DNA of 64,000 nucleotides from Prostheceraeus crozeri (Eukaryota; Platyhelminthes; Polycladida; Euryleptidae): the NCBI GenBank assembly GCA_907163375.1, contig CAJQUW010000926.1, positions 124,001 through 188,000 of the forward strand, in the 5' to 3' direction. Positions 33,341-55,811 of the stretch are shown here, piece after piece (the stretch's first letter is position 1; the number at the start of each line of letters is the position of its first letter). The position numbers were made by a program, and so were the translations under genes. The notes beneath the pieces are model-generated. The model was not told the DNA's origin and made no database searches. It saw nothing but the letters and a program-made list of their open reading frames with translations.

Positions 33341-33429
33341 TCTTATTTAAAAAATAATAACTAGATAGATAGAGAGAGAGAGAGATCTATCGGAGGACGA
33401 AAATCTAGATCCAAAGGATGAAAATAGAT

Positions 33430-33506
33430 CTAAAAATCTATATCGGAGGACGGTTGTCAAGACAGTTAATCAACAAGTTAATCATCATTTCTCAATCACA
33501 TTCCAG
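33430..33506 (+). promoter_or_regulatory. 5' leader of element A
   Basis: 77 nt, identical at 76 positions to 38573-38649. It ends TCTCAATCACATTCCAG, with a branchpoint-like GTTAATC 25 nt upstream, and the ATG of ORF1 follows after one base. It thus has the form of a 3' splice site joined to a coding exon. Confidence 0.8.
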
Positions 33507-33507
33507 A

Positions 33508-34656
33508 ATGTCTTCGACAGCCCCCGTGACAGCTCAACCCATTTCACCTCATCAATCCTCATCTTCATCATCCTCAACATCCCAAGTCGGTTTTGTCACC
33601 TCCGATACAAAATGCAAGAAATGCTCGCTGATGATCACTGATCAGTTCTTTCTTAACTGTAAAAAGTGCGATGCCAGCTTCCATCACGGCTGCACTGAAT
33701 TACCATTATTCGAATTAGTAAAGTATATGAAGGAGAACCTTTACAAGAGAAAATATGCGTGTAGCGAGTGCATTGAAAGGATCCATCAACATGAATATGT
33801 AACGCTTAAAGAAAATGTCAAGAAGTACAACGGAAATGAGCAACTTCTGAATGAATACAAAAGGCGGCTAAAGCTCAAAGACGATGAAATAGCAGATGTG
33901 AAGAGAACGATCCACGAAGAAATTGCGAAAAGAGATGAAATGAAAAACGAACTGGAGATGCAGAGTGAAGAACTACAAGCAATGGCGAAAAAGAACGCGG
34001 ACCTACTTCTAACACTGGCATCTTACGAGAGCCAACTGAGTGACTACGAAGAGAAGGAGAAGAGAAATCGGGAGAACATCAACGAAGAAGTGAACAACAA
34101 TTCAAACGGAAGGACCAGTGACGACGAAGTGATCAAACTTTATGAAACTGAACGAAAGAATACGAACTCTGAGATAAGCGTTATAAAGCATCTCATCGAC
34201 GACCTGAGGACCACTGTAAACAACAAGCTTAACAATCAACAACAAGCAGATCCGACGACTTACCAACCGCCAACACCACCAAGAAATTATCAAACAAGGC
34301 CGTACTACCAGCAGCAACGACGACCGGCCCCGACATGCCATTCGTGCGGGTGGAGAGGCCACATTGCCAGGAATTGCTATTCGAACCGACCGAGATGGAA
34401 CGCGCCGAGGAACAATTATTATTCACGACCACCACGACAACAATATCCACAGTATCGACAGCCAAACTACCAACGATACCAACCGCAACAGCAATACCAA
34501 CCACAACGACAATACCAGCAGCCACAACAGCAATATCGTCGCCAGTCATATTTCCAGCCTTCAATGAACAGTCAACCAACCTTTTCGACTATGGCACAAG
34601 GACAGTTCCAAAATATAGACCAACCAAGTTTACAGCAGCAACAGCAGTATATTTAA
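33508..34656 (+). CDS. ORF1 (gag-like) of element A: PHD finger, coiled coil, CCHC
   Basis: 382 aa. I chose ATG 33508, next to the end of the leader; the upstream in-frame ATG at 33418 would translate the leader. Ser-rich N-terminus; PHD-type finger about residues 31-83 (CKKC, NCKKC, FHHGC, CSEC); charged coiled coil about 95-225 (MKNELEMQSEELQAMAKKNA); Pro/Gln/Tyr-rich basic tail with a CCHC knuckle (CHSCGWRGHIARNC). ORF1 proteins of this kind bind the element RNA. The last codon is ATT and the stop TAA is followed by C, giving TTT-AAC in the +1 frame used by ORF2. The frame is intact. Confidence 0.88.
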   Translation: MSSTAPVTAQPISPHQSSSSSSSTSQVGFVTSDTKCKKCSLMITDQFFLNCKKCDASFHHGCTELPLFELVKYMKENLYKRKYACSECIERIHQHEYVTLKENVKKYNGNEQLLNEYKRRLKLKDDEIADVKRTIHEEIAKRDEMKNELEMQSEELQAMAKKNADLLLTLASYESQLSDYEEKEKRNRENINEEVNNNSNGRTSDDEVIKLYETERKNTNSEISVIKHLIDDLRTTVNNKLNNQQQADPTTYQPPTPPRNYQTRPYYQQQRRPAPTCHSCGWRGHIARNCYSNRPRWNAPRNNYYSRPPRQQYPQYRQPNYQRYQPQQQYQPQRQYQQPQQQYRRQSYFQPSMNSQPTFSTMAQGQFQNIDQPSLQQQQQYI

Positions 34657-37600
34657 CAGAAGTGAGGGAGGAGAGGAGACAGAAAAAAGTGAGAATAAGA
34701 TGCAAGTGATCAGAATATTTTACACCAATATAAATGGTTTAAATGATGAAAAAATTAAAGACCCTGATATGATAAAAGACACATATGATGCAGATATAAT
34801 GTGCTTCAGTGAAACACATCTAACTGAATTTAATGACATGTCAGTTGACCAATATAGCGTCATAGAAACTACTAGCAAAACTAAAAACAACCTTGGTCGA
34901 CAAATTAAAGGAATGAATCTGTATTATAAAACTGATAATTTTTGCACAAAGAAATTAGTATCTGAAAATGGAGATACAATAATAATTGAAATAGCCAACG
35001 AACAATGGGATAAAATAAGAAAAATTCATATCATTTTGTGCTATAGAGAAAGCAGAGAATCTAAATATGCTGATAAAGATTACCTTGACAGAATAAAATG
35101 TCACATAGAAAATTTTAAAATGAAAAATATCATAATGTTGGGAGATCTGAATAGTAGAATAGGTAAGCTAAATGATAACAACCACTTAAATCTGCCACTG
35201 AGAAATTCTGAAGATTTGATTGTAAACAAACAGGGAAGAGAACTAATTAACTTTTGCAATGAAACATCTCTTATAATTACCAACGGAAGATATGAAAATG
35301 GGGAACATACATTCTGTAGGCTTCAAAATGACAAATGCTATAAATCAGTGATTGATTACTTAATAATTTCGGAATCATTGCTAAATAATTTAGAAGCCCT
35401 CAAAATTATGGAACCTAAAATATTCACTGATCATAGACCAATGAAAATTAATATCAGAATTAAATTAAAATCAACAGCATACAAAGTACCAAAAAAGAAT
35501 TTTAAAACACAAATAAATTATGATAAACGCATTATCCCTTTCAAATGGACACTTAAGCATGACATTGAAAAATATCGTCAAAATATTTTGATTAAGGGAT
35601 CAAACCTAATGAAAGAAATTAAAGAAAAGCAATTGAATAAGTCAGAAATTTACAATAAACTAATTGAGGCCAACAAGGAATCATTGCAGTCCATGAATTC
35701 AAGTAATCAAATAATGTATTCTAAAGACGTAAGATTTCTTAGAAAAACGTATAAACAAAATGTTGGAAGATTTAAAGCCGATCAATCTGAGCAAAATCTA
35801 AGCGTGTTGCTACAAACAAAAAGAGAACTCAACAAAAGCTTAAAAAAGGAAAAAAAAGGAATTTGCAACAAAAAAAGCTAAACGAACTACAAGTAGCAAG
35901 AGCTAACAATGACACAAAAAAATACTGGGCGATATTAAATAAGAATAAACGCAAGAAATGTACAAGACGTGCGACCTCCTTAAATGCTCAAGATTTTAAA
36001 GAAAATATAGAGAAAAATAATGCTGATATTAAAAATCTAACACATAAGAAAAATTTAGAAAATATAGAAATTCAAATAACCCCCGTCGAAAATGATGACT
36101 TTCTAAATCAAAGTATCACTATAAAAGAAGTTGAAAATGCTATAAAGTACTCAAAATCCTCAAAATCCAGTGGTCCAGATGAAATAGTCAATGAAATGAT
36201 AAAGAATGATCCTAATCAAGTTAAAATTTTGCACACACTTTTTAATAAGATTATGATAGACCATGATACTCCTTGGCATAGCAGTTGGATCACTCCCATT
36301 TATAAAAAAGGCAAGAAAGATGATGCTAATTCATATCGGTGCTTGAATTTATCTTCATGTATTGAAAAGCTAATGACAAGAATATTAAATGATAGATTAA
36401 ATGTTTGGATGGATAAATACAAAATATTACATGAATCACAAACAGGTTTTAGGAAAGACAACTCTACGATTGACAACCTATGGATCTTAAAAGAAACGAT
36501 ACAAATATATAAAAATGATAAGAAACCACTGTACACATGCTTTGTTGACCTTAAGAAAGCATTTGATTCTGTCTTAAAAAGTAGATTGATGACTAAAATA
36601 AAATGCATTATTCCTAAAGGTAACTTTTCATCATTAATAGAACACATTATAAACGACAAAAAATATAAAATTCTATTCAATGGAAAGGAAAGTGAAGAAT
36701 TTCAGCTAGAAAGTGGTGTTCCTCAGGGAGACAGCTTGTCTCCAACTCTATTTTGCATATATATGAATGACTTTTTAAATGACTTGCATAGAAACATCGA
36801 TAAACTTGATCCTGTAAAAATAATAGATATTCATATATTGACACTCATCTATGCAGATGATATTTTGTTACTGAGCGAAACACAAGCTGGTCTAATCAAA
36901 CAAATTAAGCAACTACAAAAAATTTGCGTAGATAATAGTTTAAAAATAAATTACGAAAAGACAAAAATAATGATTTTTAATGAAAAACAAAAATATGAAA
37001 AGCTTGTTATAAATGAAAACTTTTATTCTTCAATTGACGTTGTAGAGGAATATAAGTATTTAGGTAATTGGATTGCAAAAAGTGATAGAAAGCAGATAGA
37101 AGAATTAACCAAAAAAGGAAATACCTCAGCATATGTAACTGCCAAAACCTTGAAGGAATTCTGCAATGTTGATGGTAAAATACTAACAGAAGCATTTGAG
37201 ATGTTAACGATTTCAAAAATGAAATATGGCAGTGAACTATTTTTCGATAAAAATTTAAATGATTTAAATCGTGTGATTGTGCAATTTTATAAACGATTTC
37301 ACCATTTACGAATGACTACACCTAACTATTGTATCATAGGAGAATTTGGTATAAAACCAATGGAATTTTATTGCTATAAATCAGCAATTAACTATTTTCT
37401 TAAGTTAAATAACAGCGATAGTATGCGATTAATCACACGAGTATTCAAAAACATAAAAAATAATATAGACCAGAACTCTTTCCGCAATACATGGTACATT
37501 AGAATAAGTAATTTATGTGACAAAATCAAATTCAGGGAAATGCAAAACATGAATTACAGTGGAAAATCTAAAAAGATGATAAATAACGTGCTAACAGAAT

Positions 37601-38028
37601 ATTTCAGAAAGGAATGGATAAACAGTGCCAAACAAAGCAATAAAGGATTAAATTATTTACAGCTATGTAGATTTCAGTGTGAATTAAAACATTATCTTAC
37701 ACTCAGCAGTGACAAAACTAAAATCAATAATATCATCAAAATGAGAGTAGGAAATCATACACTAGCAGCAGAAATTGGAACGCATCAAAATCGTAATACT
37801 TATAAAGACTGTGTTTGTAAATTGTGTAATCTAGATCAGATCGAAGACATCTATCATTTCTTTGTTATTTGTCCAAGCTACAGCAATGAGAGAAATACTT
37901 TAATTCCATATCTGAAAGATATGGCAAGATCAGACTTCTATGACTTGATGGACTCATTGACAATTGGACAAATAAGATCAATCAACGAATATATTGATAA
38001 AGCAATTGTAATAAAAATGCGTAGATAA
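34655..38028 (+). pseudogene. ORF2 of element A: APE endonuclease and RT, one frameshift
   Basis: In the +1 frame relative to ORF1. It starts in the GGEE-coding purine tract; the first ATG is 34700. Endonuclease motifs: YTNINGLN, FSETHL, GDLNSRIG, SVIDYLI and TDHRP. RT motifs: SSGPDEIV, WITPIYKKGKK, ESQTGFRKDNST, CFVDLKKAFDS, GVPQGDSLSPTLF, LIYADDILLLS. A C-terminal knuckle follows (CVCKLCNLDQIEDIYHFFVIC). A one-base change in an A-run near 35858 shifts the frame, ending the first piece at 35881; the second, from about 35863, is open to 38028. No RNase H. It otherwise seems recently active. Confidence 0.88.
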
Positions 38029-38572
38029 CGAACAGTGACTGAGTTGACGTCTACAAATGTGATTGCGACACATTTAGGATGATTTTTACTTTGAACCAGA
38101 TAGTTGACAGACGAAGATATCTGATACAATAGAAATATTGCCATTCATTCTGCTAGATATCTAGGATCTGAGATGTCACCAAATATGATGAATAATTTCA
38201 TAGAGAGCAAATAATAAACATTACTATCTATTATCCATAAATGCTTGTAGCATTTACTTCTAAGCTTGTAGTCTAACATAAATAGACAATAACAATTTCT
38301 ATGGTATTATTAATTTCTATGTAGTCATACAATCTTCCTTACCGACATGATAGACTTTTCTAATCAATATTGTGGTCAAATGACGAACTGTGAATGAAAT
38401 GAAACACGTACTGCTGGTTGATAAGATTTCTAATGATAAAGTAATTACAATCAATGAATGAAACGATGAAATATAACAAAGGGTAGTTGAAATGCACTGT
38501 TGCATTGTTGAATGATCGTGAAAATCACTCATAGGCGTAGACAGCGGACAAGATGATTAAATCTGTCACTCG
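38029..38572 (+). other. 3' UTR of element A before the repeated leader
   Basis: AT-rich, no coding frame. It separates the ORF2 stop from the leader copy at 38573; the corresponding lengths in B and C are about 700 and 380 bp and the sequences are not clearly alignable by eye. Confidence 0.6.
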
Positions 38573-39180
38573 CTAAAAATCTATATCGGAGGACGGTTGT
38601 CAAGACAGTTAATCAACAAGTTAATCATCATTTCTCAATCACATTTCAGGTACGTACCGTGTTTGCAGTTTCAAAATCATTGATCATACATGTAATTAAT
38701 TAACCGCTCCTCCGATTATTAATAGGATTACTAATAGGGTTAATAATCTGCTGCTGGGTGTGATGAGTAAATAAAATCACTAAATAAAATTGATAACAAA
38801 TAAAAATGAAACAATTCTAAAAGAAATAATCAACAACTTTTATGCATGCTTTGTCTCTTCTCCTCCTAAATGTGACACAACATTTTCATTGTCTCATAAT
38901 TCATTACGTTCGTTAACATTACATATAAAAACTTTAGCAGACTATTTTCAGACTCATTCCTACCATCAACATCTCTACGAATACAACGGCGATCATGGTG
39001 CTTGTGCGATTTTAGCTTTCCATTTCATCCATCCCATTCATTGTTGCCATCTTCAACTTTCTTGCACATTAATTGCATTGAAATATTGTATTACTTGTAA
39101 TAGTCTGTTTGTTCCCACACTGTTGGGCAATAAACCATTTGAGTTTTGAGTTTTTGAGTTTTGAGAGAGAGAGAGAGAGA
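38573..39180 (+). promoter_or_regulatory. 3' cassette of element A: leader copy, CAG|GTACGT, stem arm, poly(A) signal
   Basis: Leader copy 38573-38649 is followed at once by GTACGT. Stem arms ATCGGAGGACGGTT (38585-38598) and AACCGCTCCTCCGAT (38702-38716) pair with one bulged C. Next come AATCTGCTGCTGGGTGTGATG, the pyrimidine tract GTCTCTTCTCCTCC (38853-38866) and TTGGGCAATAAACC with the GA tail. The same order of parts occurs in B, C and the solo pieces. Confidence 0.75.
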
Positions 39181-39182
39181 TT

Positions 39183-39268
39183 CAAGCATTCCTACATATC
39201 GGAGGTCGGAAACTTCAACCGTTCGTGCTCCATACTTGACTAATCAAACTTTTGTCATATCATTCCAG
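39183..39268 (+). promoter_or_regulatory. 5' leader of element B
   Basis: 86 nt, 85 matching 44416-44501. It contains ATCGGAGGTCGG and ends with a branchpoint-like GACTAATC, a T-rich stretch and CATTCCAG. ATACTATC precedes the ORF1 ATG. Confidence 0.8.
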
Positions 39269-39276
39269 ATACTATC

Positions 39277-40326
39277 ATGAGTGCGGCGCCAACAACCCCG
39301 ATAACTGATCAACCAACATCTCCTGCATCCCGATTTGCAAAGCTTGAAGTTTTGTGTGAGAAATGCGAGAAAGTAGTCCCAACAGACAGCTCTCTTGAAT
39401 GCAAAAAGTGCAACACACTTTGGCATTTTAGTTGTACTGACCTCCCACCGTTCGAAATTGTGAAGTATTACAAAGACAACCTATATCATAGAAAATTTGC
39501 ATGCTCAAAATGCATTGAGAAGATACACCCTCAAGAATTTGCCATAGTAAAGGATCAAATGAATAGCTATGATGGCAATTCTACTCTTCTCAGCGAGTAC
39601 AAGAAACGCTTGCAGGTGAAGCAAAACGAAATGATTGAGCTGGTTCAAAACCTCGACAGAGCCCTGGAGGAGAAAAACAAATTGGAAGAAGTATTGCAAT
39701 TGAGCAGAAAAAATGAAACTATGATCCTCTCATTAAATATGTACGAGACACAGCTAGCTGAATTTGAAGAAAAGGAGAGATCGAGAAAAGATCAAGGCTC
39801 AGAGCAACAGAATACGGATAGCAGCAACAACGAAGTACTCACATTACTACGAAAGCAAAAAGAAGATACAAGAAGTGAACTGACGGTAATAAAACATCTG
39901 ATCGACGATATAAGAATAACGGTGGATAGCAAACCCTACAATCAAAGTCCACAGCCGATCCAGCATCCTCCTCACCAGCATTACAGGCAAGCAATCCCCC
40001 GCAATCATTACAGACAACAGAGAAGACCACCACCGAAGTGCTATTCCTGCGGACGAATCGGGCACATCGCTCGAAACTGTTGTAGCTCCAGACAATCCGG
40101 AAGATGGACCAGGAATAACAGGGGCAATTTCCGCAGACCTCACCATCCAACCTATCCACAGCATCCGACATATCACCAATACTCGCAGCAGCATCAGCAT
40201 CCACAGCCATATCAACAACCTTTTCAACAACATCATTTCCCAATTGTGAACAATCATCCTGCAGCTCAGCCAGGTAGCCTCTATCCGAACTATAACATGC
40301 ATTCGTCAATGCAACCTTTTGTTTAA
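39277..40326 (+). CDS. ORF1 (gag-like) of element B
   Basis: 349 aa, intact. PHD-type finger about residues 28-81 (CEKCEKVV, ECKKC, WHFSCTDLPPFEIV, CSKC); coiled coil about 100-215; CCHC knuckle CYSCGRIGHIARNC; His/Gln/Pro-rich tail ending PFV. The last codon GTT and stop TAA are followed by C, again placing TTT-AAC in the +1 frame. It shows about the expected divergence from A ORF1: same domains, different low-complexity tail. Confidence 0.87.
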   Translation: MSAAPTTPITDQPTSPASRFAKLEVLCEKCEKVVPTDSSLECKKCNTLWHFSCTDLPPFEIVKYYKDNLYHRKFACSKCIEKIHPQEFAIVKDQMNSYDGNSTLLSEYKKRLQVKQNEMIELVQNLDRALEEKNKLEEVLQLSRKNETMILSLNMYETQLAEFEEKERSRKDQGSEQQNTDSSNNEVLTLLRKQKEDTRSELTVIKHLIDDIRITVDSKPYNQSPQPIQHPPHQHYRQAIPRNHYRQQRRPPPKCYSCGRIGHIARNCCSSRQSGRWTRNNRGNFRRPHHPTYPQHPTYHQYSQQHQHPQPYQQPFQQHHFPIVNNHPAAQPGSLYPNYNMHSSMQPFV

Positions 40327-43300
40327 CATAGACGAACGAGGAGAGGAGGCGCCTAAGATAGGAGAAAATTGTGGTAAGAGCAACAAGACATTAAAAATTT
40401 ATTATACTAACATTAACGGATTAAATGTTAATAAGCTTCATGACTCTGATATGATCAAAGATATACAAGACACTGATATCGTCTGTTTTACTGAAACTCA
40501 CTTAAATGAAAATGCATCTCTAAATTTAGCGATAAATAATTTTCATGTTATAGAAACCTTCTGTAAAAATAAGAATAATTTTGGAAGACAAATTAAAGGA
40601 GTGAGCTTGTATTATAGAAATGAGCAAAACAGACTAAATATAGAAAAATTGGTTGCTGAAAATGGAGACCTGGTAATTATAAAGATGTTAAATAGTGAAT
40701 GGAAAGAATTGAAAGAAATATTTCTTATCCTTTGCTACCGAGAAAGCAGAGAGTCAAAATACGCTGACAAAAATTTCTTAAATAAAATAAAGGAATATAT
40801 AAAGACATTCCAGATGAAGAACGTCATCATGTTGGGAGATCTCGATAGCAGAATCGGTAAATTAAATGACAACGAACATATGAATCTCCCCACCAGAAAA
40901 TCTGAAGATTCAATAATAAATAAACAAGGCAGATAAATGATAGAGTTTTGCAATGAAAATTGTCTTGTTATAGCAAACGGTAGATATGATACCGGAAAAC
41001 ATACTTTCTGTAGAATTCAAAAGGAGAAGAACTGTAAGTCCGTCATCGACTATTTGATCATATCAGAATCCATGATAGAAAAATTAAAGGCCTTTGAAAT
41101 TTTAGAACCTAAACTATTTACGGATCACAGACCTTTGCAGATAAAATTTGATATAGAAACAAAAACATCGATGAGGACTAATTCAGTCAGACATAGGTAT
41201 AATATCAATCAAGCAATTAAACCATTCAAAATGATCACAAATCATGATTCAATTAAATTTAATGAAGCTCTAATAGCAAAAAGTGCAACACTAATCAAAA
41301 AGATAAATGAAGAAAAACCAAATTCAATAGAAATATATAATTATCTGATTAGCGCATGTAAAGAAATATGTATCAAAGCAGAACCGAATAGACAAATAAC
41401 ATATTCTAAAGATACAAAAAATTTTCGTAAAACTTACAATGCTGCTATCGAAACTTATAAACAAAATTCAACAGAGGAAAATCTACATGCTCTGCTACGA
41501 AAACAGAAAAACAGTACAACAAAAACTTAAAATCAGAGAAACGAAATTTGCAAAAGTTATCTGAACTTCAAAATGCAAAAACGAACAATGACTCGAAAAA
41601 ATATTGGGAACTGTTGAATAAAAGTAGACCTAAAAAAGTAAAAAAGTCAAAAGTAAATTAACCGCAGAAAATTTTAGAGACTATCTTGAAGATAGAAATC
41701 AACAATTTATGCAATCAAAAGTCAATCAAAATGAAATGAATTCTCATCTATGCACAAAAATCGAAGATAGCTCTTTAAATAAAAAAATCACTTTAATGGA
41801 AATTGAAAGAGCAGTTAAATCAACAAAAAATTCTAAATCCAGTGGCCCAGACAAAATAATATATGAAATGTTTAAGAATAATCCAAATCAAATAAAGGTG
41901 CTTGAAGTACTTTTCAACAACATCTTGCATGATAAAACCACTCCATGGGAATTAAGCTGGACAACTCCTATCTTTAAGAAAGGAGACAAAAATGATGTGA
42001 ACTCATATCGATGCTCAAATTTGTCATCATGTATTGAGAAGATTCTAACGAAGATACTGAACGATAGACTACATACTTGGATAGATAAATACGGATTACT
42101 TCATGAATCTCAAACTGGGTTCCGAAGAGAACACTCAACCATAGATAATATCTGGATGATCCGAGAAATTATTGAAATTCATAAAAATTCCAGACAGCCC
42201 CTTTACATATGTTTCATTGATCTTTCAAAGGCTTTTGATTCAATTCCTAAATTTCATTTAATCAACAAATTAAGAGCTATTATACCGAAAGGCGACTATT
42301 TGTCCTTAATGGACAATATAATAAATAATAAAAAATACAAAATATTATTTGATGGAAAATAAACTGGAGAATTTAGATTGAATAATGGAATTCCACAGGG
42401 AGACAGTTTATCACCAATATTATTTTGTCTTTATATTAATGATTTGTTCTGTAAATTTGACGCAAATATGAAGAACATTGATCCAGTTGAAATAATTGAT
42501 ATCAAATTAGCATCAATAGTATATGCTGATGATCTGGTATTATTAAGCAAATCCAAAAATGGATTGATCAGACAGCTGGAATACATGAGAAAATTCTGTA
42601 ATGAAAACGGTCTAACAATAAACTATGAAAAAACTAAAATTATGATATACAATGAAACAAACATATTTAGGGAGTTATTACTGATTCAAGTAGTAGAAGT
42701 TATAACACCGATTCAAGTAGTAGAAGAATATAAATACTTAGGTGTTTGGATCGCAAAAAGCGACAGAAAGCAAATTGAAGAAGTCACTAAGAAAGGAAAG
42801 TATCATCATACATAGCTGCCAAAACTCTGAAAGAATTTGTAACTGTTGACGCGAAGATATTAAATGAAACATTTGAAATGTTGACACTATCGAAAATGAA
42901 ATATGGTGGTGAATTACATTTTGATAGAAATTTGAATGATCCGAATAAAATTATTATGCAATTCTATAAAAGATTTCACCATTTAAGAATCACGACACCA
43001 AACTATTGCATAATCGGTGAATTCGGCATAAAACCCTTGGAATTCCATTACTATAAATCAGCTTTAAATTATTACATGAAGTTAAAGGAAGATAAAAATA
43101 ATCATAGACTGATTACACGAATTTTTAAGGCTATAAATGCCAACCTAAATTTGAAATTATTCCGCAATACATGGTGTGACAGGATAGTTAAACTGATGAA
43201 TAAGACTCATTTGCTACAACTACAAAACTTTGATTGTAATGATAAAAAGCCAAAAACTGTTATCAACACCGTTTTATTTGAATATTTCAGGAAAGACTGG

Positions 43301-43711
43301 ATTAACAGTACAAGAAATAGCAGCAAAGGAATAAGATATTTAGAACTATGTAGATTTCAATATGAGACGAAGCAATATTTGCATCTAGTTAGCAATAAAA
43401 TCAAGATTGAAAATATCCTGAAACTTCGAACTGGTAATCACACTCTTGCAACAGAAACTGGCACATATCAAAACCGAAGTACTCATAACGATTTCATTTG
43501 CAAATTCTGTGATAAGAATGAAATAGAAGACATTTTTCATTTCATGTCAATTTGTCCACGATATATGACGGAACGACTTGCATTGATTCCATTCCTAAGT
43601 AATTGTGATCGGTCGGATTTCTATGAAAGTATGAATACGCTAAAGGCAAGACAGGCATGTGCCATCGATGAATTCATTGCCAAAGCAATGCACATCAGGA
43701 ACAATCGATAA
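40325..43711 (+). pseudogene. ORF2 of element B: endonuclease and RT, several disabling changes
   Basis: No ATG precedes the endonuclease core YTNINGLN; the frame is open from the ORF1 stop. Motifs: FTETHL, GDLDSRIG (normally DLNSRIG), SVIDYLI, TDHRP, then SSGPDKII, ESQTGFRREHST, CFIDLSKAFDS, GIPQGDSLSPILF, IVYADDLVLLS and the knuckle CKFCDKNEIEDIFHFMSIC. In-frame stops at about 40934 and 42360 fall where A and C have Glu (GAA to TAA), and frameshifts occur near 41515, 41650 and 42800. Element B could not make a full ORF2. Confidence 0.87.
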
Positions 43712-44415
43712 TGTTACTACTAATATCTACTACTACTAATAATAATAATAATAATTATAATTATAATAATATAATATAATATAATATGATATATAATAAA
43801 TAATAATATATAATATATAATAATATAATAATTATAATAATAATAATAATTACTACTAATAATATCTACTATATCAATCTGTCAGGTTTTCAGTTTTATT
43901 GTCATGACCGCTCCATTGAGTTGATCAACTGCTTATGATACGATTTCTATGAAGCCCTGAAAAGTTGACAAATGTGTGATGATGATAACTACATAAACTT
44001 ATGAAATCACATGTATTTGAGAAACAATAGATTCCGTTAACATTTGGATTTCCATCTGTCTTACAAATTCATCAATGCACCCAACCTGTCATATTGATCA
44101 ACTACATTCGATTTCTATGCAACTTTGAATACAACAAAGGTTGGACAGACGCATGCCATTAATGAATTCATCGATAACGCACCATACATATATAAGAAAC
44201 AAAGGGCATTTACTTTGACATGCCAACCTGCTTGTTTGATAAATGTATTATCACGCCCATTCCATTACGATTTTTAGCAAGTACTGACTACAATATCTAT
44301 GAAACAATCAAATGAATAATTAATGATCGATCCACATAGCTTTGGACATAAGAAACAGTGCCGAGTGATTAATGTTTACTGAAACTGTAGACGATGCAAC
44401 AATTGTCTCACTCTG
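43712..44415 (+). other. 3' UTR of element B with (AAT)n microsatellite
   Basis: 43730-43870 is an (ATT/AAT)n and TAATATA run. The rest is AT-rich and non-coding. Phrases such as GATTTCTATG and AATGAATTCATCGATAA echo the end of ORF2, suggesting decayed partial duplications of that segment. Confidence 0.5.
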
Positions 44416-45280
44416 CAAGCATTCCTACATATCGAAGGTCGGAAACTTCAACCGTTCGTGCTCCATACTTGACTAATCAAACTTTTGTCATATCATTCCA
44501 GGTATGTAAAATTTATTCATCTGAATTTCTGTTCTTGAACGTGATCTGTCCCATGGGTTTCTCTTGCTTCGCCAGAGGAATGCTATATTACATTCTTGAC
44601 TCTTGGAACACATCACGTTCTACTACTTGTACTTACAAAATTTTTGATTTTAATAAACCGAACCTCCGATTTAATAATAGGGTTAATAATCTGCTGTGAT
44701 GAAGTGTGATTGGTAAATAAGACATTAATAACATTTACTAATTCTTAAATTAACATATGTTTATCATCACAATTGCTATGCATATCATCCTTTTGAGATA
44801 TATTTGCCTCCTCTCCTCATTCGTTTATGACAATCCTTCCTGCTCATTTACTCATGCATACTATGATGATTATGCTTAACATGCGATGAGAGAAATTCAT
44901 GCCTTTGTAAATGTATCATAATCATTCTCGTTATTGTAATTTGGTTGCCATGATTTCATGCTCATGCCTCAATGTCATCGTACTCATATTTTTGTAAATA
45001 ATATCATTAATAATATCATAATGTGAATTTCTAATTGTGCATCAGAAACTTTTCAGACTCATTCTAACGCAACATCCGTCGAAGTGCTTCATGTATATCA
45101 TTCCTCATCGTGAATCAGACATCATTCCTGGTTGTGGTTGCCGCATTCGTTCATTCATCCACTCAATTTTTTTGTAAATCTCATCTCTTTTTATGTTACA
45201 TTAATTATCATTACCACATAACTTTCTCTGTTTGTACCAAAATTTGGTCAATAAACTTTCTGAGTTCTGAGAGAGAGAGA
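44416..45280 (+). promoter_or_regulatory. 3' cassette of element B: leader copy, CAG|GTATGT, stem arm, poly(A) signal
   Basis: Leader 44416-44501 ends CATTCCAG and is followed by GTATGT. The arm ACCGAACCTCCGAT (44657-44670) pairs with ATCGGAGGTCGG of the leader (this copy has one G-to-A change, ATCGAAGG). Pyrimidine tract GCCTCCTCTCCTC at 44806-44818. AATAAA near 45250, then the GA tail. Confidence 0.75.
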
Positions 45281-45281
45281 G

Positions 45282-45971
45282 CTGAAAAAAGCATTGCACC
45301 AAGTAACAATGAAGAAGAATGAAATCAACGAAGAATTGGAAGCTCGCAAAGCAGACTTCAACATTGTGCAGAGGAAGAACACAGATCTTCTCAAAACGTT
45401 GGCGACGTATGAGGGTCAGCTCCGAGAATACGAAGACAAGAAGACAAACAGCCAAAGCAACAATAATGAAGAGGAAGAAGACAATGACAACTTAAGAAGA
45501 GCAATTGAAATCCAAAAACAAAATACTGATTATGAAATTACGGTTTTGAAACACATGATAGAGGACATTAAATCAACTGTGAATAACAATTCCAACCATC
45601 AACAAGACCATTACTCGACATCGAATCAGCCGCCACCACAGCATCAAAGACGGCCTTACTACCAAAATCGGGGAAGACCACCGCCAATATGTCATTCTTG
45701 CGGACGAAGGGGCCACATAGCCAGAAATTACTGGTCTCGACCAAGGTGGTATGCAAACCAGCAAAGAAATTTCCGAAGACCACAGCAGCAGCAATACAGA
45801 CCACCGTATCAACGACACCAATATCAAGAGCAGTATCAGCCCCAACAACAACCTCAACAACCAACGTACCCTACCATGAATCAACAAGGGTCATACCAAC
45901 AACAATGGAATCAGCAGGGGACATACCAACAACAACAGTGGAATCATTTTGGTGCACAGCAGCAGTTTTAA
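45282..45971 (+). pseudogene. ORF1 of element C, 5'-truncated
   Basis: About 229 codons are open from the insertion point. Only the coiled coil (MKKNEINEELEARKADF) and the C-terminal part remain. The knuckle reads CHSCGRRGHIARNYW: the final Cys is Tyr, so zinc binding is probably lost. The Gln/Tyr-rich tail ends QQF; TTT then TAA-C, with ORF2 in the +1 frame. Confidence 0.85.
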
Positions 45972-48900
45972 CGAAAATGAAGGAGGAGAGGAGACGGTAA
46001 CATCTGAGGCAGAAAGTGAGACTAAAAGCCAAACAATCCGATTATTTTATGCTAACATCAATGGATTAAACATTAATAAAATTAAAGACATTAATATGAT
46101 CAAAGATACATGTGATGCCGATATAATATGTTACACTGAAACACACATAACTGAATATGATAACCTAACAATTGACCAATTCGACTTAATAAAAACGTTC
46201 AGCAAAACTAAGAATAATCTTGGCCGACAGATCAAGGGAATTAATCTGTATCATAAAAGTGAGGGAATAAGTATCGAAAACTTAATTAACGAAAATGGAG
46301 ATATGATAATAGTAGAAATGAAAAACAAAAATTGGAAAGATGTTAAAAAATACATTTGATATTTTGTTATAGAGAATGTAGAGAATCCAAATATGCCGAC
46401 AAAGATTACCTTTATAAATTAAAAAAATACATTGAAAAATTCAAAATGCATCATATCATCATGTTGGGAGATCTAAATAGCAGAATTGGTAAAATTAATA
46501 ATAACGAACATTTAAATCTCCCAATAAGAAGCTCTAAAGATTTAATTATAAATAAGCAAGGTCAGGAGCTAATTAACTTTTGTAATGAAACATCGCTTAT
46601 TATAGCTAACGGGCGATATGAAAACGGCGAACATACTTTCTGCAGGCTCCAAAACGACAAATGTTGTAAATCCGTTATAGACTACCTGATACTTTCTGAA
46701 TCTATGTTGAAGTATTTAGAAGCCTTCAGAATAATGGAGCCAAAAGTATACACTGATCATAGGCCAATGGAAATTGATATAAAAATTGCGTTAAAATCAA
46801 CCGCAACTAAGTTTCCAGATAAGAATTTCAATCTACAAAATAATCCTAACAAGCGCATCGCTCCCTTCAAATGGAAGACGAACTATAATTTTGCAAAGTA
46901 TAGCCAAGCTATTTCAGACAAAGGATTAAAACTTTTAGAGGAAATTGCAAGTAAACAATTAGATAAAACGGAGATTTATGATAAGTTAGTCATGGCTAAT
47001 AAGGAATCATTGCAAGCTACAATGATTGCTAATGGCCAAACAATATATACTGAGGAAACAAGATGTCTTAGAATCACGCATAAACAAAATGTTGAAATGT
47101 ATAAATCAGATCAATCTGAAACAAATTTAAGCTTATTAATGCAAACGAAACGGGAACTTAACAAAAACATGAAAAAGGAAAAGCGAAAGCTACAACGAGT
47201 GAAGCTAAATGAATTAAGTGAAGCAAGAGCAAATAACGACCTCAAAAAATATTGGGAATTACTTAATAAAAACAAACGTAATAGAAGCGCAAAGTATAAA
47301 ACTACACTTAAATCTCTATCGTTTAAAGAAAATATAGAGAAAAGAGATAAAGAAATCAAAACTCTTAATTTTGATCGAAATAGAGCCTCTTTTCATAATC
47401 AAAAGAACTCACTTAGAGACGATGACACTTTAAATATGGATATTACGACAGCGGAAGTAGAAAATGCGATAAAAAGTTCAAAAAATTCAAAATCCAGTGG
47501 CCCAGATGGAGTAGTGTACGAAATGCTGAAGAATGACCCGAACCAAACACAAATTTTGCTTGCTCTATATAATCAAATAATAAACGACTATGCTGTTCCA
47601 TGGCATTGTAGCTGGATCACCCCCATTTATAAGAAAGGTGATAAAAATAATGCCAACTCTTATCGATATCTAAATTTGTCCTCATGCATCGAAAAGTTAT
47701 TGACAAGAATATTAAATGATAGATTAAATTCATGGATTGACAAGTATAAAATATTGCATGAATCCCAAACTGGTTTCAGAAAAGGGCATTCTACTGTTGA
47801 CAATATCTGGGTTCTTCAACAAACTGTTCAAATATACAAGAATGAAAAGAAGCCACTGTATGCATGTTTTGTAGACCTTTCAAAAGCTTTTGACACTGTA
47901 AAAAAGAGCAAATTAATAGAAAAGTTGAAATACATCATACCCAAAGGTAAATATTTATCATTATTAGAAACTATTATAAGAAACAAAGAATATAAAATTC
48001 TCTTCAATGGAGAAGAAAGTGTCAAGTTTCATTTAGAACATGGCATTCCTCAAGGAGATAGTCTATCTCCCACCTTCTTTTGCGTATACATGAATGATTT
48101 TTTAAATAAACGGTACGAAAACATTTATGAATTTGACCCAGCAAAGATTACTAATACAAATTTAGCTGCACTTATATATGCTGATGATATTTTGTTGCTG
48201 AGTGAATCACAAGCTGGCATTATTAAACAAATAAAATTTCTCCATAAATTTTGTGAAACAAACAGTTTGAAAATTAATTATGATAAGACAAAAATAATGA
48301 TATTTAATGAGGCAAAAGAATATGATAAGCTAATTTTGAACGATTGTATCACGCAAATTGAAGTTGTAAAGACATACAAATACTTGGGTGTTTGGATTTC
48401 AAAATCCGATAGAATACATATTGAAGATTTAGCAAAAAAAGGAAAAGCATCTTCATACGTAACCGCCAAAACTCTGAAAGAATTCAATACTGTTGATGGC
48501 AAAATATTGACGGAAACATTAGAAATGTTGACTATATCGAAAATGAGATACGGAAGTGACTTGTTTTTTGACAAAAATTTAAGTGACCTAAATCGTGTGA
48601 TTATACAGTTTTACAAAAAATATCATCATTTGCGAATAACAACTCCTAATTATTGTATTATTGGTGATTTTGGTGTTAAACCAATAGAATACTATTACTA
48701 TAAATCGGCTTTAAATTACTTTCTCAAATTAAATAGAAATGATGATGATAGGCTAATCACACGAATATTCAGAACCATTAATGAAAATAGAGACCATGCA
48801 TTATTTCGCAATACGTGGTGCAATAGAATACATAAATTGTTTCAAAAAATTAACCTGCAAGAAATGCAAAACATGGAATGCAGTGGAAAGTCCAAAATAA

Positions 48901-49355
48901 TGATTGAAAATACATTGAAAGAATATTTCAGGAAAGAATGGATTGATAGCGCTAAACATAGTGAGAAAGGATTAAGCTATTTAGAATTGTGCAGATTTCA
49001 GTGCGAATTAAAAACATACCTAGCAGTAAGTAACAGCAAAACTAAAATAGAAAATATTCTCAGATTAAGAACTGGAAATCACACCCTGGCAGTAGAAGTT
49101 GGAACGTATCAAAATCGTAGCACTTATAAAGATTGTGTTTGTAAATTCTGTGATCTGAATAAGACTGAAGATATATATCATTTCATTGTTGAATGTCCTT
49201 GCTATGACAATGAAAGAAATGCTTTAATTCCACACCTGAAAAATGCTATGCGATCAGATTTCTATGCGTACATGGATTCTCTAACGATAAGAGAGATCAG
49301 AACGGTAGACGAATATATCGAAAAAGCATTGTATATTAGAACCATAGATAGCTGA
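45970..49355 (+). pseudogene. ORF2 of element C: endonuclease and RT, one frameshift
   Basis: Best-preserved ORF2 of the array: 999 codons are uninterrupted from 46356. One lost base near 46345 (A-run before the ILCYRE-equivalent region) breaks the first part. There is no ATG before YANINGLN; the frame is open back to the ORF1 stop. Motifs: YTETHI, GDLNSRIG, SVIDYLI, TDHRP; SSGPDGVV, WITPIYKKGDK, ESQTGFRKGHST, CFVDLSKAFDT, GIPQGDSLSPTFF, LIYADDILLLS; knuckle CKFCDLNKTEDIYHFIVEC. It ends TIDS-stop. Confidence 0.9.
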
Positions 49356-49738
49356 GTTAGACCAACCGATCTCAGAAAGTCAACACGATTGTTAAAGGAC
49401 TTTCATCAGAAAGCATTTATGGAAAGATGAAATTGAATCTGAAATCATAGATAGCGGAATGTGGACATTACTGTTCGCATGACTTCATCCAGTGCGGTGG
49501 ACATGATTGACCTATCTGATCAATATGAGCAACGTGATTGTATCGGAGACAATAGAAATCAAATGCATTTCTTTATCAGATTGCTATTATCATGCGAAAT
49601 GACCAAATGATGACACCTTGATAATGGATAGGAAGGACAATACATTGATAACACGAATGTCCTGCTACTTTGTCTCTTATGAGTCTTAATCAGATGCAAC
49701 TGTAGCAGAACAGTCAGCTGTATCAGTCACTCGTGACA
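49356..49738 (+). other. 3' UTR of element C before the leader copy
   Basis: Non-coding, moderately AT-rich, with no repeat recognised. Confidence 0.5.
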
Positions 49739-50348
49739 AATTTACATCGGAGAACGGTGACATAACTGGTGGTGCTGTTATCATTCCTCAACATTTTCTA
49801 ACTACATTTCAGTTATGTATACTGAATGTGATCTACTATAAATGATACATGAACAATATTAATTGTTATTAAAAAACCGTTCTCCGATTAAATAACAAGA
49901 CGTTAGAGTTAATAATCTGCTGCTGGGTGTGATGTGCAAATAATACCGCTTAATAATTGTGATTAATAAATAACCTGAAGTATTGCTCTGAATTATATCA
50001 ACGAATCCATTGACAACAAAATGATGCATATTTTGCCTCCTCTCCTCCATGTGTATTGAACTTTCATCTTTTTTGTGCATGATTCATCGACACATCTAAG
50101 TCTCATCGTTAACCTCATTTGTAAATATCTCAGTACTTTTTCAGACATTCATCGTTATATTTTATGGATATCAACGGCGATAGTGGTGCAGTTGTTTTTA
50201 ACTTTCATCTCACATCCCCATTGTCATCTTTCATCTTCTGCCGCGCAACTAAATAAATGTAATATGTAATAATGTAGATGTATTTGTTTGTCCCACCTGT
50301 TGGGCAATAAACATTTTTGAATTTTTTGAATTTTTGAGAGAGAGAGAT
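49739..50348 (+). promoter_or_regulatory. 3' cassette of element C (C1)
   Basis: Leader-like 49739-49812 ends TCTAACTACATTTCAG, but the next bases are TTATGT, so the donor G is lost. Stem arms ATCGGAGAACGGT (49746-49758) and ACCGTTCTCCGAT (49876-49888) pair perfectly over 13 bp. Pyrimidine tract GCCTCCTCTCCTCC at 50035-50048. AATAAA near 50310. Nearly identical to the solo copy at 58804-59423. Confidence 0.75.
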
Positions 50349-51727
<1,379 letters not shown>

Positions 51728-51833
51728 TTCGTAAATAAACTGAATAATTGCCTAATCAAGTCACAAGCAAGGGCCGGATCAACTTCATACATATACATTT
51801 TACCAAACCCTCAAATCCTTTGTCATTACAGAA

Positions 51834-53059
51834 ATGAAGTCCGTGAAGACCGTGGAGACTGAACCAACATCTCCCAACCGGGATTTAGGTGAAGTGGACA
51901 TCTGTGTGTGTGGAAGGGAAGAATCTGCTGAAGAAACACTGTGTTGTGATAAATGTAAGTGCAATTTCCATCTTACTTGCACTAAACTCCCAGCTTACGA
52001 AATAACAAAGTACTTAAAAAGCATTTATATGAGCGGAAGTATGCGTGCGAGGCCTGCATCGGGAATATTCATGCAAGCGCACTCCAACAGTATCAGCAAG
52101 CACTATCAACTCCAGCCTCACAGAACACAATTGACAGTGAAACCGATGAGCTCAAAAAAGAACTTGAAGCACTGAAGAAGAAGACAAAGGAAGCAGAAGA
52201 AACTGTACACTAGAAAGATAAGAGAATCGAAGAATTACTATCTACAATTACGCAAGACAACACAGAGGAAGCGGAGTCACTGAAGAACGAAATCGAAGAA
52301 TATCAGAGAAAAATTAGGTATCTCGAATCAAGCCTTTTTCTCAGAGAAAGAAAAATTGAGGACCTTCTGTCATCAGCGAACACCCTTGAAGAGGAAATGA
52401 AACGACAAGACGACACGGCAACTGAGGTGAGAAAGCAAATTGACGATTTAAGAAGACAAAATACTGAAAGATCTCGCAGATGGCATCTTGATAGCGAAGC
52501 AGAAGATCTTGGAGAAAGAGATACCTAAACGAAAGCAGAGATACAAACTCTGATCGAAAACATCAACAAGAAGATAGACGAAGTGAAAGACGGGCTGGAA
52601 AGACGGCAACAGGTTGGAGAAACATCAGAAGCTCGACCAAGACGCTATCAGCCAGCAGCAAACTGCAACATCAACCAACATCAATTGCCTAAGTGTTATA
52701 ACTGTAGCAAATATGGTCATATCGCCCGCAATTGTTGGGGCAGGAGAAACTACAACGACTATAACTGGCAAAGAAGAAGACCAAGAACAAGACCCAGATG
52801 GCAAAATAATAACAACAGAGCCTATGATGACAGCCGAAGACCATGGCAAAACCGAAGGCCACCTCAAGGAGAAAATCATAGGATGGAATATGAAAGAAGA
52901 TTCAGTGTGAGCCCTATCATCAATGAAAGAGGCGAAAGAAGATACATGCCAACGTACGTTCATGCACGCAACAGCATCCCAAACAGACAACCACCAGAAA
53001 TGCAACCATCACCAGTAGTACCTATGCAGACCTCGCACGGATACCCTCAGTATGTTTGA
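51834..53059 (+). pseudogene. ORF1 of element D, broken
   Basis: It starts at ATG 51834, two bases after the leader CAG. PHD-type finger CVCGREES, CCDKCKCNFHLTC; a frameshift near 52018 moves the last zinc pair (ACEAC) to another frame. The coiled coil (LKKELEALKKKTKEAEE) has in-frame stops near 52212 and 52527. From 52583 the frame is open to the end with CCHC knuckle CYNCSKYGHIARNC and an Arg/Asn-rich tail ending PQYV. The last codon GTT is followed by TGA-T, giving TTT-GAT in the +1 frame of ORF2. Confidence 0.82.
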
Positions 53060-55811
53060 TGACATAGGAAAAGGAGAGGAGATGAACGAAGACGTTATCG
53101 AAAATGAAACCAATGCTAATGAGGTTACAATTGATATCACTGATCATATTCCTAGAAAAAAGCACAAACTTAAGTTCTTCTATTTTAACATAAACGGTTT
53201 GACTGATTGTGAAATCAAGGACTCCTGTTTATTGAATGATATAGATAATTCACATATAGTATGTTTTACTGAAACGCATTTGAAAAATGATTGGGACCCA
53301 CCTGTGATTAAACATTATGCCGAATATCATACGATCGCTGAAAAGACAAATTTCATGGGAAGAAATGTCAAGGGAGTATCACTATACAATAAAATTCAAC
53401 AAGATGAATACAAAACAGCAACCATTATAAACGAAAACGGAAACCTTTTGATCTTTAAACTTGTGAATGAAATATGGCAGAATCTCAATCATATTTTTTT
53501 GATTATATGTTATAGAGAAAATCGTGAATCAAAATACAAGGAGAGCAATTACTTTAGCAAAATTAAATTTTATATTTCAAAATTCAAAATGAAGCACATA
53601 ATTCTGGTAGGAGACTTAAATGGACGAACCGGAAATTTAAGTGATATTAACGGAGTGACCCTCTTGCCAAGAAATTCATCTGACGAAATAATCAATGGAC
53701 AAGGCAGACAAATTATTGAATTCTGTAACGAAACATCACTAATTATTGCAAACGGTCGATTTGAACCTGGAAAGCCTACATATATTGCGCTACATGGCGA
53801 TAATTTGAGAAAATCAGTCATTGATTATTTACTAATATCGCACTCAATGATACCATATGTAAGGAAATTTGATATTTTGGAACCTACTCTATATACTGAT
53901 CACATCCCACTGATATTCGAGTTGGCTATAGACGAAAAGAGCGAAGCTCCTTGCAATCATTCAAATAATGATATATCAAGACGATCATATAAAAAACTTA
54001 ACCCATCCAGGTCGATCAGACCTCATAAATGGACTAGTCAAAATAAAACGAACTTCGATAATGATTGTTATAAAATCGGATGCCAATACCTTTTACATGA
54101 AATTGACGCTAATAATCTACCCACCCCAGTTGTGTATGAAAGAATGATAGACGACAAGAATGTCGCAACAAGAAAAATTCAAAATTCATCAAATAAAATC
54201 ATTTATTCTGAAAAAACAAGGGAATGTAGAAGAGCCTATAAAAAAGCTATTTGCGATCTAAAGTGTGAAAACAGTGAAGACAACTTAGTCAATCTAATGA
54301 AATACAAGCGTGAGTTAAGTAAAACAATCAAAAGAGAGGAGAGAATAAATAAATTAAAGAGACTTCAAAAATTAGAAAAAGCGAAATTTGAAAAAAATCA
54401 TAGAGAATACTGGCAAATTATAAGAGAAAACAAAACATTAGTAAAACATATCCAGAAAAGCAATCTTACAATATGCGATTTCCAAAAATATGTCGAAGAA
54501 ATAGATTCAACATCGCTTAGAGAAGTAGATTGTATATCGACCCACTGTATTTCTTCACTGACAATTACAAACAAAATTTCGACTACAAATATGTACGATT
54601 ACAAAAATCTGGAATCAGATATAGCAAGTGAGGAAGTAAAAGAATGTCTGAAAAAAGTAGCCAACTCGAAGTCCAGTGGACCAGATGGTCTTGTGTATGA
54701 AATGTTTAAAAAAAATATAGACGAATCGAGCGAAATTTTAGTGCACCTCTTCAACAGCATAATGGAAGATCGAAACATTCCATGGCAATACAGTTGGCTG
54801 ACACCCATACTTAAAAAAGGAAGTAAAGACAATGTAATGTCTTACAGATGCATAAATTCATCAACATGCTTAGAAAAAATAATGACTAAAGTTATTAATA
54901 ATCGACTTAACTCATGGCTAGAAGGAAACCACGTTATCCACGAATCCCAAATAGGCTTCAGAAAAGGACACTCCACCCTTGACAATATTTTTATACTAAG
55001 AGAAATAATTCAAATTTATAACAATAGAAAAGCTCCACTCTATTTATGCTTCATCGATTTAACAAAGGCATTCGATTCAATCTCGAAACGTAAATTAAAG
55101 GATAAACTAGACAACACGATCCCAAATAGCAGAATCTTAAAATTAATCAAGAATTTGATTGACAACAAACGTTATAAAATTCTATATGAAGGAGAAGAAA
55201 GTGATATTTTCACACTCAGAAATGGAATTCCACAAGGAGATAGTTTGTCACCGACACTATTTTGCTTATTTATGAACGATCTGCTAACTATATTGGAAAT
55301 ATAGCAATCCTAGACCTGACAAAAATAAATGAAGTAACCATAACGGCGTTGATGTACGCGGATGATATTTTATTGTGCAGCGAAACGCAAGATGGATTGA
55401 TTAAGCAGATTGGGATAGTGAATCAATATTGTGATGATAATGGATTAGAAATAAACTGCAACAAAACGAAAATTATGGTTAAAAATGTGAACACTAAATA
55501 TAGCCACGTTAACATAGAGCACGGCAGCTCAGTAAAAGCTATTGAAATTGTTCAAGAGTACAAGTATCTCAGGATGTTCATAGCAAATAGCGATAGAAAG
55601 TATATAGAACTATTAGAAAATAAAGGTAAAAAATCATCATATACAACAGCAAGAACACTTAGAGAATTTGGTCACGTTAATGGAAAAATCTTAAAAGATA
55701 CTTTTGAAATTTTAACTTTGTCGCAGATGAGATACTGTGGCGAATTCCTTTTCTACAAAAATCTAAAAGACCTGAATCGTATACAACTCCAATTTTATAA
55801 AAGGTTCTGCT

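What the first reader, a model, noticed from the sequence alone, without database searches (positions are those of the whole stretch)
33430..44501. Each LINE carries its own 5' leader again in its 3' region, ending exactly at CAG|GT
Seen: A leader 33430-33506 equals 38573-38649 (76/77); B leader 39183-39268 equals 44416-44501 (85/86). A and B leaders are unrelated over most of their length, yet each matches its own partner. Identity ends at CAG in both. In the 3' copy CAG is followed by GTACGT (A) or GTATGT (B); in the 5' copy by the ORF1 start. The leader ends also look like 3' splice sites (GTTAATC, GACTAATC or TCTAACT branchpoint-like words, T-rich, CAG). Inference: the 3' copy is a leader exon plus donor, or a recursive splice site, and genomic 5' ends derive from spliced RNA. 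Either the cassette of an upstream array member supplies promoter and exon to the next member, or the element encodes a spliced-leader-like RNA.
Basis: partly seen in the sequence, partly recalled or inferred. Interest (0 to 1): 0.88.

Follow-up and report, generated by a model that had tools for sequence, protein, structure and literature searches.

The report
Retrotransposons with swappable spliced-on leaders
A family of jumping genes, probably in a flatworm, seems to carry near its tail a small leader exon that is spliced onto the front of its own or its relatives' RNA, at the same spot where the host adds its own spliced leader, so each new copy gets a fresh start.

Summary
In detail: 76/77 and 85/86 identity ending at CAG, followed by ORF1 in the 5' copies and by GTACGT or GTATGT in the 3' copies. 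The host genome (2.05 Gb, unnamed) shows why. LINE 5' ends come from spliced RNA: in six ORF1 families an element-type leader (ending CAG) and the host's 50-nt spliced leader (ending GCATG) meet ORF1 at the same position, so the site is a trans-splice acceptor. Leaders are exchanged: 11 copies of ORF1 family J bear 4 J leaders and 7 foreign ones. Copies read at both ends: 6 match, 3 mismatch, 2 host leader (one only a 9-nt remnant). Of 22 scored copies, 21 start +1 to +13 from the A of a TCAYTC initiator just upstream of the 3' leader copy. A stem with two compensatory pairs joins the leader start to a point 121-385 nt downstream. Best reading: the 3' region holds promoter, leader exon and 5' splice site that re-supply the leader each cycle, probably by trans-splicing. 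Cis-splicing from an upstream array neighbour is not excluded. No RNA data were available.

The parts
33430..33506 (+). leader A, 5' copy: ends at CAG, directly followed by ORF1; also the 3' splice acceptor
   Evidence: same junction in L010, L021, L023 and (truncated) L015, host SL at the same junction in L012
33507..34656 (+). element A ORF1 (ATG at 33508): Cys/His-rich N-terminus and CCHC-like knuckle by eye
   Evidence: no Pfam hit; no homologue found
34700..38028 (+). element A ORF2: endonuclease and reverse transcriptase, in two overlapping frames (broken)
   Evidence: PF14529, PF00078
38537..38571 (+). promoter-like block: GTAGAC 38537-38542 and initiator TCACTC 38566-38571 (A at 38568)
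   Evidence: similar block upstream of leaders B (GTAGAC) and C (GTAGCA) by eye; copy 5' ends map to +1..+13; promoter function inferred
38573..38649 (+). leader A, 3' copy (leader exon)
38650..38655 (+). 5' splice site GTACGT
   Evidence: GT in 13 of 13 A-type 3' copies printed
38585..38596 (+). 5' arm of stem, ATCGGAGGACGG
38704..38716 (+). 3' arm of stem, CCGCTCCTCCGAT
39163..39180 (+). (GA)n separator between A and B, the presumed insertion target
39183..39268 (+). leader B, 5' copy
   Evidence: 7 B ORF1 copies with this junction, 2 with host SL
39277..40326 (+). element B ORF1 with zinc knuckle PF00098
40319..43711 (+). element B ORF2, broken into several frames
44387..44413 (+). promoter-like block of B: GTAGAC 44387-44392, initiator TCACTC 44408-44413
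44416..44501 (+). leader B, 3' copy; stem 5' arm 44431-44442
44502..44507 (+). 5' splice site GTATGT
   Evidence: 17 of 17 B-type 3' copies
44658..44670 (+). 3' arm of stem of B
45281..50347 (+). element C, 5'-truncated in ORF1, ORF2 open (46356-49355); 3' leader about 49734-49812, donor position reads TTATGT; stem 3' arm 49877-49888
51727..59420 (+). element E: another 5' leader type ending CAG at 51831; the 3' leader 58811-58880 plus GTATGT and the 3' end are C-type (96% to C)

Best explanation
These are LINEs that insert head to tail at (GA)n and whose 5' UTR is not inherited directly but re-supplied by splicing. Each 3' UTR contains a small cassette: a promoter-like block with initiator TCAYTC, a leader exon of about 75-90 nt ending CAG, a 5' splice site (GTACGT or GTATGT), and a downstream sequence that pairs with the start of the leader. 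RNA starting in the cassette donates its leader to the acceptor just before ORF1 in LINE pre-mRNA, most likely in trans and often from the same or a related element. That acceptor is the one to which the host spliced leader is also added. Reverse transcription then makes the leader the 5' end of the new copy. Because the leader ends in branchpoint-like words, a T-rich tract and CAG, it becomes the acceptor for the next round; the host leader, ending GCATG, would not provide one. Shown in DNA: repeats, exact junctions, leader exchange, host SL at the same site, 5' ends clustering at the initiator, covarying stem. Inferred: promoter activity, the spliced RNA itself, trans rather than cis, function of the stem.
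For: Six ORF1 families have both leader kinds at the same junction: A, B, G, F, H, I. The host leader is real: a likely gene with SL|GTAAGC and exon-donor stem folds at z -4.4 (L066). Leader exchange: J ORF1, 4 own and 7 foreign of 11; C8496 has a B' leader 5' and a C-type cassette 3'; C10128 has B 5' and its own type I 3'. Each foreign leader in J is a different type or a diverged version, so foreign leaders do not look passed on as 5' UTRs. In 21 of 22 scored copies (leaders A, A', B, C, J) the 5' end is +1 to +13 from the A of TCAYTC, so 5' copies lack the upstream block and must be renewed. Leader G: of 24 hits, 13 followed by GT, 3 by ORF1, 8 undetermined. Stem: two compensatory pairs across families while arm spacing varies 121-385 nt; shuffle z -2.87, -3.91, -2.32, -2.05. 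Own-family leaders exceed the rough cassette share (A 5/5, C 6/8, J 4/11).
Against: No RNA evidence. The cassettes have no Rfam match, do not fold like the host SL RNA (versus 40), and I saw no convincing Sm-like site by eye. Element leaders found by leader searches sit only on LINE ORF1s (14 of 14), whereas the host leader sits on LINE ORF1 in only 11 of 28 loci, which suggests the element leader is not a general trans donor. Head-to-tail arrays offer a simpler cis route. In the arm matrix the own partner is not always the best one. E's 3' end begins exactly at the leader and runs unspliced to the (GA)n, suggesting long unspliced cassette RNAs also exist. L030 starts at least 22 nt upstream of the initiator.
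Confidence: 0.57

Rival explanations
1. Cis-splicing in arrays (HeT-A-like with an intron): transcription starts in the 3' cassette of the upstream neighbour, runs through its tail and the (GA)n into the next element, and the neighbour's leader is spliced to ORF1 as an ordinary intron removal. Solo copies, lacking an upstream donor, get the host leader.
For: Elements insert head to tail at (GA)n. Explains LINE-only partners, foreign leaders, and the host leader on copies without an upstream donor. HeT-A and TAHRE have sense promoters in the 3' UTR and lie in head-to-tail arrays (passages of PMC5537684).
Against: In the 11 adjacencies where I could judge both families, read by eye, the upstream neighbour is a different family, yet own-family leaders prevail in A (5/5) and C (6/8). 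Caveat: neighbours were mostly judged by their 3' ends, which can themselves be swapped. J needs many different active parents, one per neighbour. The neighbour's AATAAA signal lies inside the proposed intron. The covarying stem is not needed.
Confidence: 0.26
2. The 5' leader is an ordinary internal-promoter 5' UTR inherited vertically; identity with the 3' copy is kept by template switching or gene conversion, and splicing is only an occasional accident.
For: The core GGACG/GGTCG about 24-28 nt after the initiator resembles a downstream promoter element (recalled, not tested). TART has perfect non-terminal repeats and TRE5-A has B-modules at both ends.
Against: 21 of 22 scored 5' copies start at +1 to +13 and lack the upstream block. 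Homology-driven switching cannot put unrelated leaders or the host SL exactly at the CAG junction. In winA, winB, L021 and L023 the few 5'/3' differences look private to one copy (by eye).
Confidence: 0.1
3. Back-splicing: the donor in the element's own 3' region joins the acceptor upstream in the same RNA, and the circular RNA is reverse transcribed.
For: Donor and acceptor lie in one RNA in back-splicing order; would explain matching leaders.
Against: Copies stop at the initiator instead of continuing into the 3' UTR; foreign leaders and host SL are unexplained.
Confidence: 0.03

Closest known systems
HeT-A / TAHRE telomeric retrotransposons of Drosophila
   Same: head-to-tail arrays; sense promoter in the 3' UTR next to the element downstream (passages of PMC5537684)
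   Different: no leader exon with a splice site for the sense RNA is described in the passages read; here (GA)n, not the chromosome end, is the apparent target
TART perfect non-terminal repeats; TRE5-A A/B and B/C modules of Dictyostelium
   Same: a named repeat or module recurs within one LINE, for TRE5-A in both UTRs (passages); that TART repeats link 5' and 3' UTR is recalled
   Different: here the repeat ends exactly at a splice junction, and the 5' copy can be replaced by foreign or host leaders
Flatworm SL trans-splicing and SL-bearing retrotransposon insertions
   Same: host leader ending ATG is joined to LINEs; PMC12582326 reports partial leader sequences at 597 discarded loci associated with mobile elements, mainly LTR and LINE, and suggests trans-spliced transcripts were integrated (passages)
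   Different: there the leader is the host's; here the elements also supply their own
SL RNA genes
   Same: leader exon followed at once by a 5' splice site, enclosed by an RNA stem
   Different: no host-like SL RNA fold, no clear Sm-like site, observed partners are LINEs only, lies inside a LINE 3' UTR

Membership tests
LINE (non-LTR retrotransposon) | endonuclease plus reverse transcriptase ORF2 | tested here: met
   PF14529 and PF00078 in A, C and E
LINE (non-LTR retrotransposon) | 5'-truncated copies | tested here: met
   element C truncated in ORF1; 4 of 20 loci truncated before the leader
SL RNA gene | leader exon directly followed by a 5' splice site | tested here: met
SL RNA gene | conserved RNA fold around the splice site | tested here: inconclusive
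   enclosing stem with two compensatory pairs, z -2.05 to -3.91, but not the host SL fold
SL RNA gene | Sm-binding site and short defined 3' end | tested here: inconclusive
   none seen by eye; no Rfam match; 3' end unknown
SL RNA gene | leader added in trans to separate RNAs | tested here: inconclusive
   foreign leaders on ORF1 fit trans or cis from a neighbour
HeT-A-like 3' promoter LINE | head-to-tail arrays | tested here: met
HeT-A-like 3' promoter LINE | 3' sense promoter | tested here: inconclusive
   5' ends map to a shared initiator; no RNA data
HeT-A-like 3' promoter LINE | telomeric location | not tested
   no telomere map; window lies inside contig C748
TART-type repeats | 5' UTR repeated near the 3' end of the same copy | tested here: inconclusive
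   met in the window and in 6 of 11 copies read at both ends; 3 mismatch and 2 have host SL, one a remnant

The most novel reading that the evidence does not exclude
A mobile element encodes its own spliced leader: a trans-acting leader RNA made from the LINE 3' UTR, competing with the host spliced leader for one acceptor, with an exon built so that after reverse transcription it is again an acceptor. Leaders form a shared, exchangeable pool among LINE families.
Probability: 0.5. Interest if true: 0.95.

Novelty: new variant of a known kind. Interest (0 to 1): 0.86.

Why it matters
LINEs risk losing sequence from their 5' end in every cycle; how they keep a promoter and 5' UTR is a standing question. 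Here the answer appears to be splicing: the promoter and leader exon are stored in the 3' UTR, which target-primed reverse transcription copies first, and are spliced back on. It would be a new way to renew a retroelement end, beside LTR strand transfer and internal promoters, and the first case I know of in which a mobile element provides a spliced leader, in direct competition with the host's. It predicts exact reads, so it can be tested at once.

Tried and rejected
Rfam search of the cassettes (window 33000-60000 and L029) and of the host SL locus L066: two weak matches, both below the family's gathering score. ORF1-A homologues: none at E 0.001. ORF2 homologues: 131, mostly unnamed contigs, best 71%; context only. 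Viral contigs: no relative. The 1.14-kb satellite on C11306 first looked like an SL gene array; its units are 5'-truncated LINE 3' ends (A cassette joined to another family's tail), so it is not counted as evidence for an SL gene. Base pairing of the 3' arm with the target's leader as the cause of family specificity: the arm matrix does not separate families cleanly. Four SL-like strings in papers: none found. Flanks sought for L010 and L030 were mostly N, for L014 partly N, and were left. The family shares were transcribed by eye (99 entries) from the listing and are rough. My notebook entry miscounts the B loci; the right figures are 17 and 3.
Full report
What is there. The window holds a head-to-tail run of LINEs separated by (GA)n at 39163-39180, 45269-45280, 50336-50347, 51193-51306, 51717-51726 and 59411-59420, with another (GA)n at 33372-33385 before element A. 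A and B have an ORF1 and an endonuclease/reverse-transcriptase ORF2 (both ORF2 frames broken); C has an open ORF2 but is 5'-truncated; E is chimeric.

The whole genome could be searched (2.05 Gb, 14165 contigs, unnamed), but only the best candidates are scored: 40 of 78 for leader A and 40 of 85 for leader B. Of the A-type leader copies printed, 13 of 13 in 3' position are followed by GT. In 20 B-type loci, 17 are 3' copies followed by GTATGT and 3 are 5' copies joined to an ORF1; of the other B hits, four more were read as 5' copies, two lie in the window, and 14 were taken as 3' copies only because a stem arm follows at the right distance. To avoid choosing by leader, I searched for the 3' stem arm plus a conserved motif downstream: 103 matches, 0 in the reversed control. 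Twenty that looked unlike A, B or the common C type were read: 4 are truncated before the leader, 14 of the other 16 have CAG|GT and 2 are changed there.

The host leader. In L012 the A-family ORF1 is preceded, at the very nucleotide where leader A normally ends, by a 62-nt stretch ending TTGCATG. Its last 50 nt (GCCGTATTT...GCATG) recur widely (406 candidates, 40 scored, 42 matches). L066 is a likely real gene: the leader is followed by GTAAGC, it folds at z -4.4, and another leader match lies 1989 bp away (not read). Of 28 loci read (L049-L076), 11 have it on a LINE ORF1 (ten by tblastn, L064 by its likeness to L070) and 17 show none. All reported flatworm leaders end in ATG (passage of PMC12582326), so the host is probably a flatworm; this is inference.

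Same acceptor. Element leaders and host leader meet ORF1 at the same position in six families: A |AATGTCTTCG; B |ATACYATCATG (host SL exactly there in C12043; in C10774 the first base is G); G |AATGTCTGCGG (L019 and L067); F |AATGCATGCGG (L023 second element and L071); H |CATGTCAACG (L021 second element and L075); I |GTTYATTCYAGAG (L033 and L057). So the site before ORF1 is a trans-splice acceptor and genomic 5' ends come from spliced RNA. L009 also belongs here only weakly: just 9 nt match the end of the host leader.

Leader exchange. A search with the first 109 nt from the ORF1-A junction gave 31 hits, all scored (the same answer twice). Family A: 7 copies, 5 with A-type leaders (one truncated) and 2 with host SL (one the 9-nt remnant). 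Family J: 11 copies, 4 with J leader and 7 foreign (one G, one F-like, one H-like, two diverged versions of one type, two others; types other than G judged by eye), all joined at the same nucleotide. Family C: 9 copies, 7 with C leader (two share the same flank, so 6 independent) and 2 foreign (I type truncated, B'). One hit (C5930) is another ORF1 with another leader. Three are G family: two with host SL (L067, and L051 where it joins farther upstream) and C6066, whose G leader abuts ORF1 by coordinates. ORF1-B: 17 hits, 15 reaching the start; 7 have the B leader end directly joined (control 0), 2 host SL, 6 undetermined. Element leaders found by leader searches sit on a LINE ORF1 in 14 of 14 5' copies (six A-type, one of them truncated; eight B-type); an early version of this comparison, 10 of 10 against 11 of 28 for the host SL, gave Fisher p 0.0008. 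This LINE-only pattern speaks against a general trans donor. Leader G: 24 hits, all scored; an exact pattern ending CAGGT gave 14 hits, 13 of them in this set (the reversed control gave 2), 3 of the 24 are joined to ORF1 and 8 are undetermined.

Own 5' against own 3'. Read at both ends (same strand, taken as one copy from spacing): match in winA, winB, C2634, C1836, C749 (ends only 4.0 kb apart) and C6884 (its 3' copy carries a 7-nt deletion); mismatch in C8496 (B' against C), C10128 (B against I) and C1889 (another type against J); host SL with an A cassette in C3340 and, as a remnant, C11452. By coordinates and pattern only, C6066 and C4480 are G/G, C8387 and C6429 are B/B, C2209 and C1656 are host SL/G, and C13855 is G against J at 7.3 kb.

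Where 5' ends start. For 22 copies with A, A', B, C or J leaders, the 5'-most base shared with the 3' cassette lies +1 to +13 from the A of TCAYTC in 21, and at -22 or beyond in L030. Not scored: the truncated L015 and L118, L122 and L125 of C, and copies whose own cassette type was not in hand. GTAG-like and TCACTC blocks recur upstream of the A, B and C cassettes where the rest of the 3' UTR aligns poorly (by eye). So 5' copies do not carry the upstream block, and full-length leaders must come from the 3' cassette.

RNA structure. The leader start ATCGGAGNNCGG pairs with CCG(N)NNCTCCGAT. G-C becomes A-U at one pair in C/E, and A-U becomes U-A at the next in B and I, while arm spacing runs from 121 to 385 nt (nine representatives). 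Folding z-scores are -2.87, -3.91, -2.32 and -2.05. The number of independent families is small, and the A arm pairs as well with the C partner as with its own, so this is good but not final support. Copy L079, with a changed splice site, also has a changed arm.

Mechanism. Splicing from a 3' cassette onto the ORF1 acceptor is close to forced by the junctions. Trans or cis is open. Cis from an upstream neighbour explains LINE-only partners and host SL on copies without a donor. Against it, own-family leaders prevail in A and C although neighbours differ in family in the 11 adjacencies that I could judge by eye, and J shows many leaders in a small family. Trans-splicing of cassette RNA, perhaps near the locus where it is made, explains both. 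I give about 0.57 to trans and 0.26 to cis.

Literature. Searches (open-access library only) listed no paper whose title or abstract start describes a retrotransposon that encodes its own spliced leader; no listed paper held the phrase 'own spliced leader'. I read passages, not whole papers, of PMC12582326, PMC5537684 and PMC5911963. Most subscription papers are not in that library.

Noticed in passing
34669, 40339, 45984 and 53072 against 38856, 44808, 50037, 50966, 51445 and 59106: The ORF1/ORF2 junction of A, B, C and E carries GGAGAGGAG-like sequence, complementary to a CTCCTCTCC-like motif in the 3' UTR of A, B, C, D1, D2 and E. Possibly a long-range RNA contact for ORF2 translation; nearly invariant, so no covariation test.
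   Followed up: partly
G000 C11306 about 67-76 kb and 105-126 kb (L024-L026, L028): A satellite of about 1137 bp units: promoter-like block, leader A', donor and stem, then another LINE family's 3' end and (GA)n.
   Followed up: partly
58795-58830: Element E joins its ORF2 to a C-type 3' end exactly at the leader start, with a duplicated ACATCGGAG; suggests template jumping between an unspliced cassette RNA and another LINE RNA. Similar partial duplications at the 5' ends of window A and L010.
   Followed up: partly
L050, L053, L062, L063, L065 and L058, L061, L076: The host spliced leader is also fused to other repeated families (starting GTGATGCC or GTGAA) without a (GA)n tract just upstream: perhaps other retroelements or retrocopies carrying host SL.
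   Followed up: no
L009:7170-7230: A variant host-type leader (ending CAATAGGATG) precedes a B-like ORF1, joined upstream of where an acceptor would be expected.
   Followed up: no
1657-2937: ORF with an integrase core (rve) and a phospholipase A2-like domain, an unusual pair, perhaps a large DNA transposon.
   Followed up: no
50348-51192: Element D1 starts like a C-type leader (AAATTTACATCGG) and then runs into unrelated 3' sequence.
   Followed up: no
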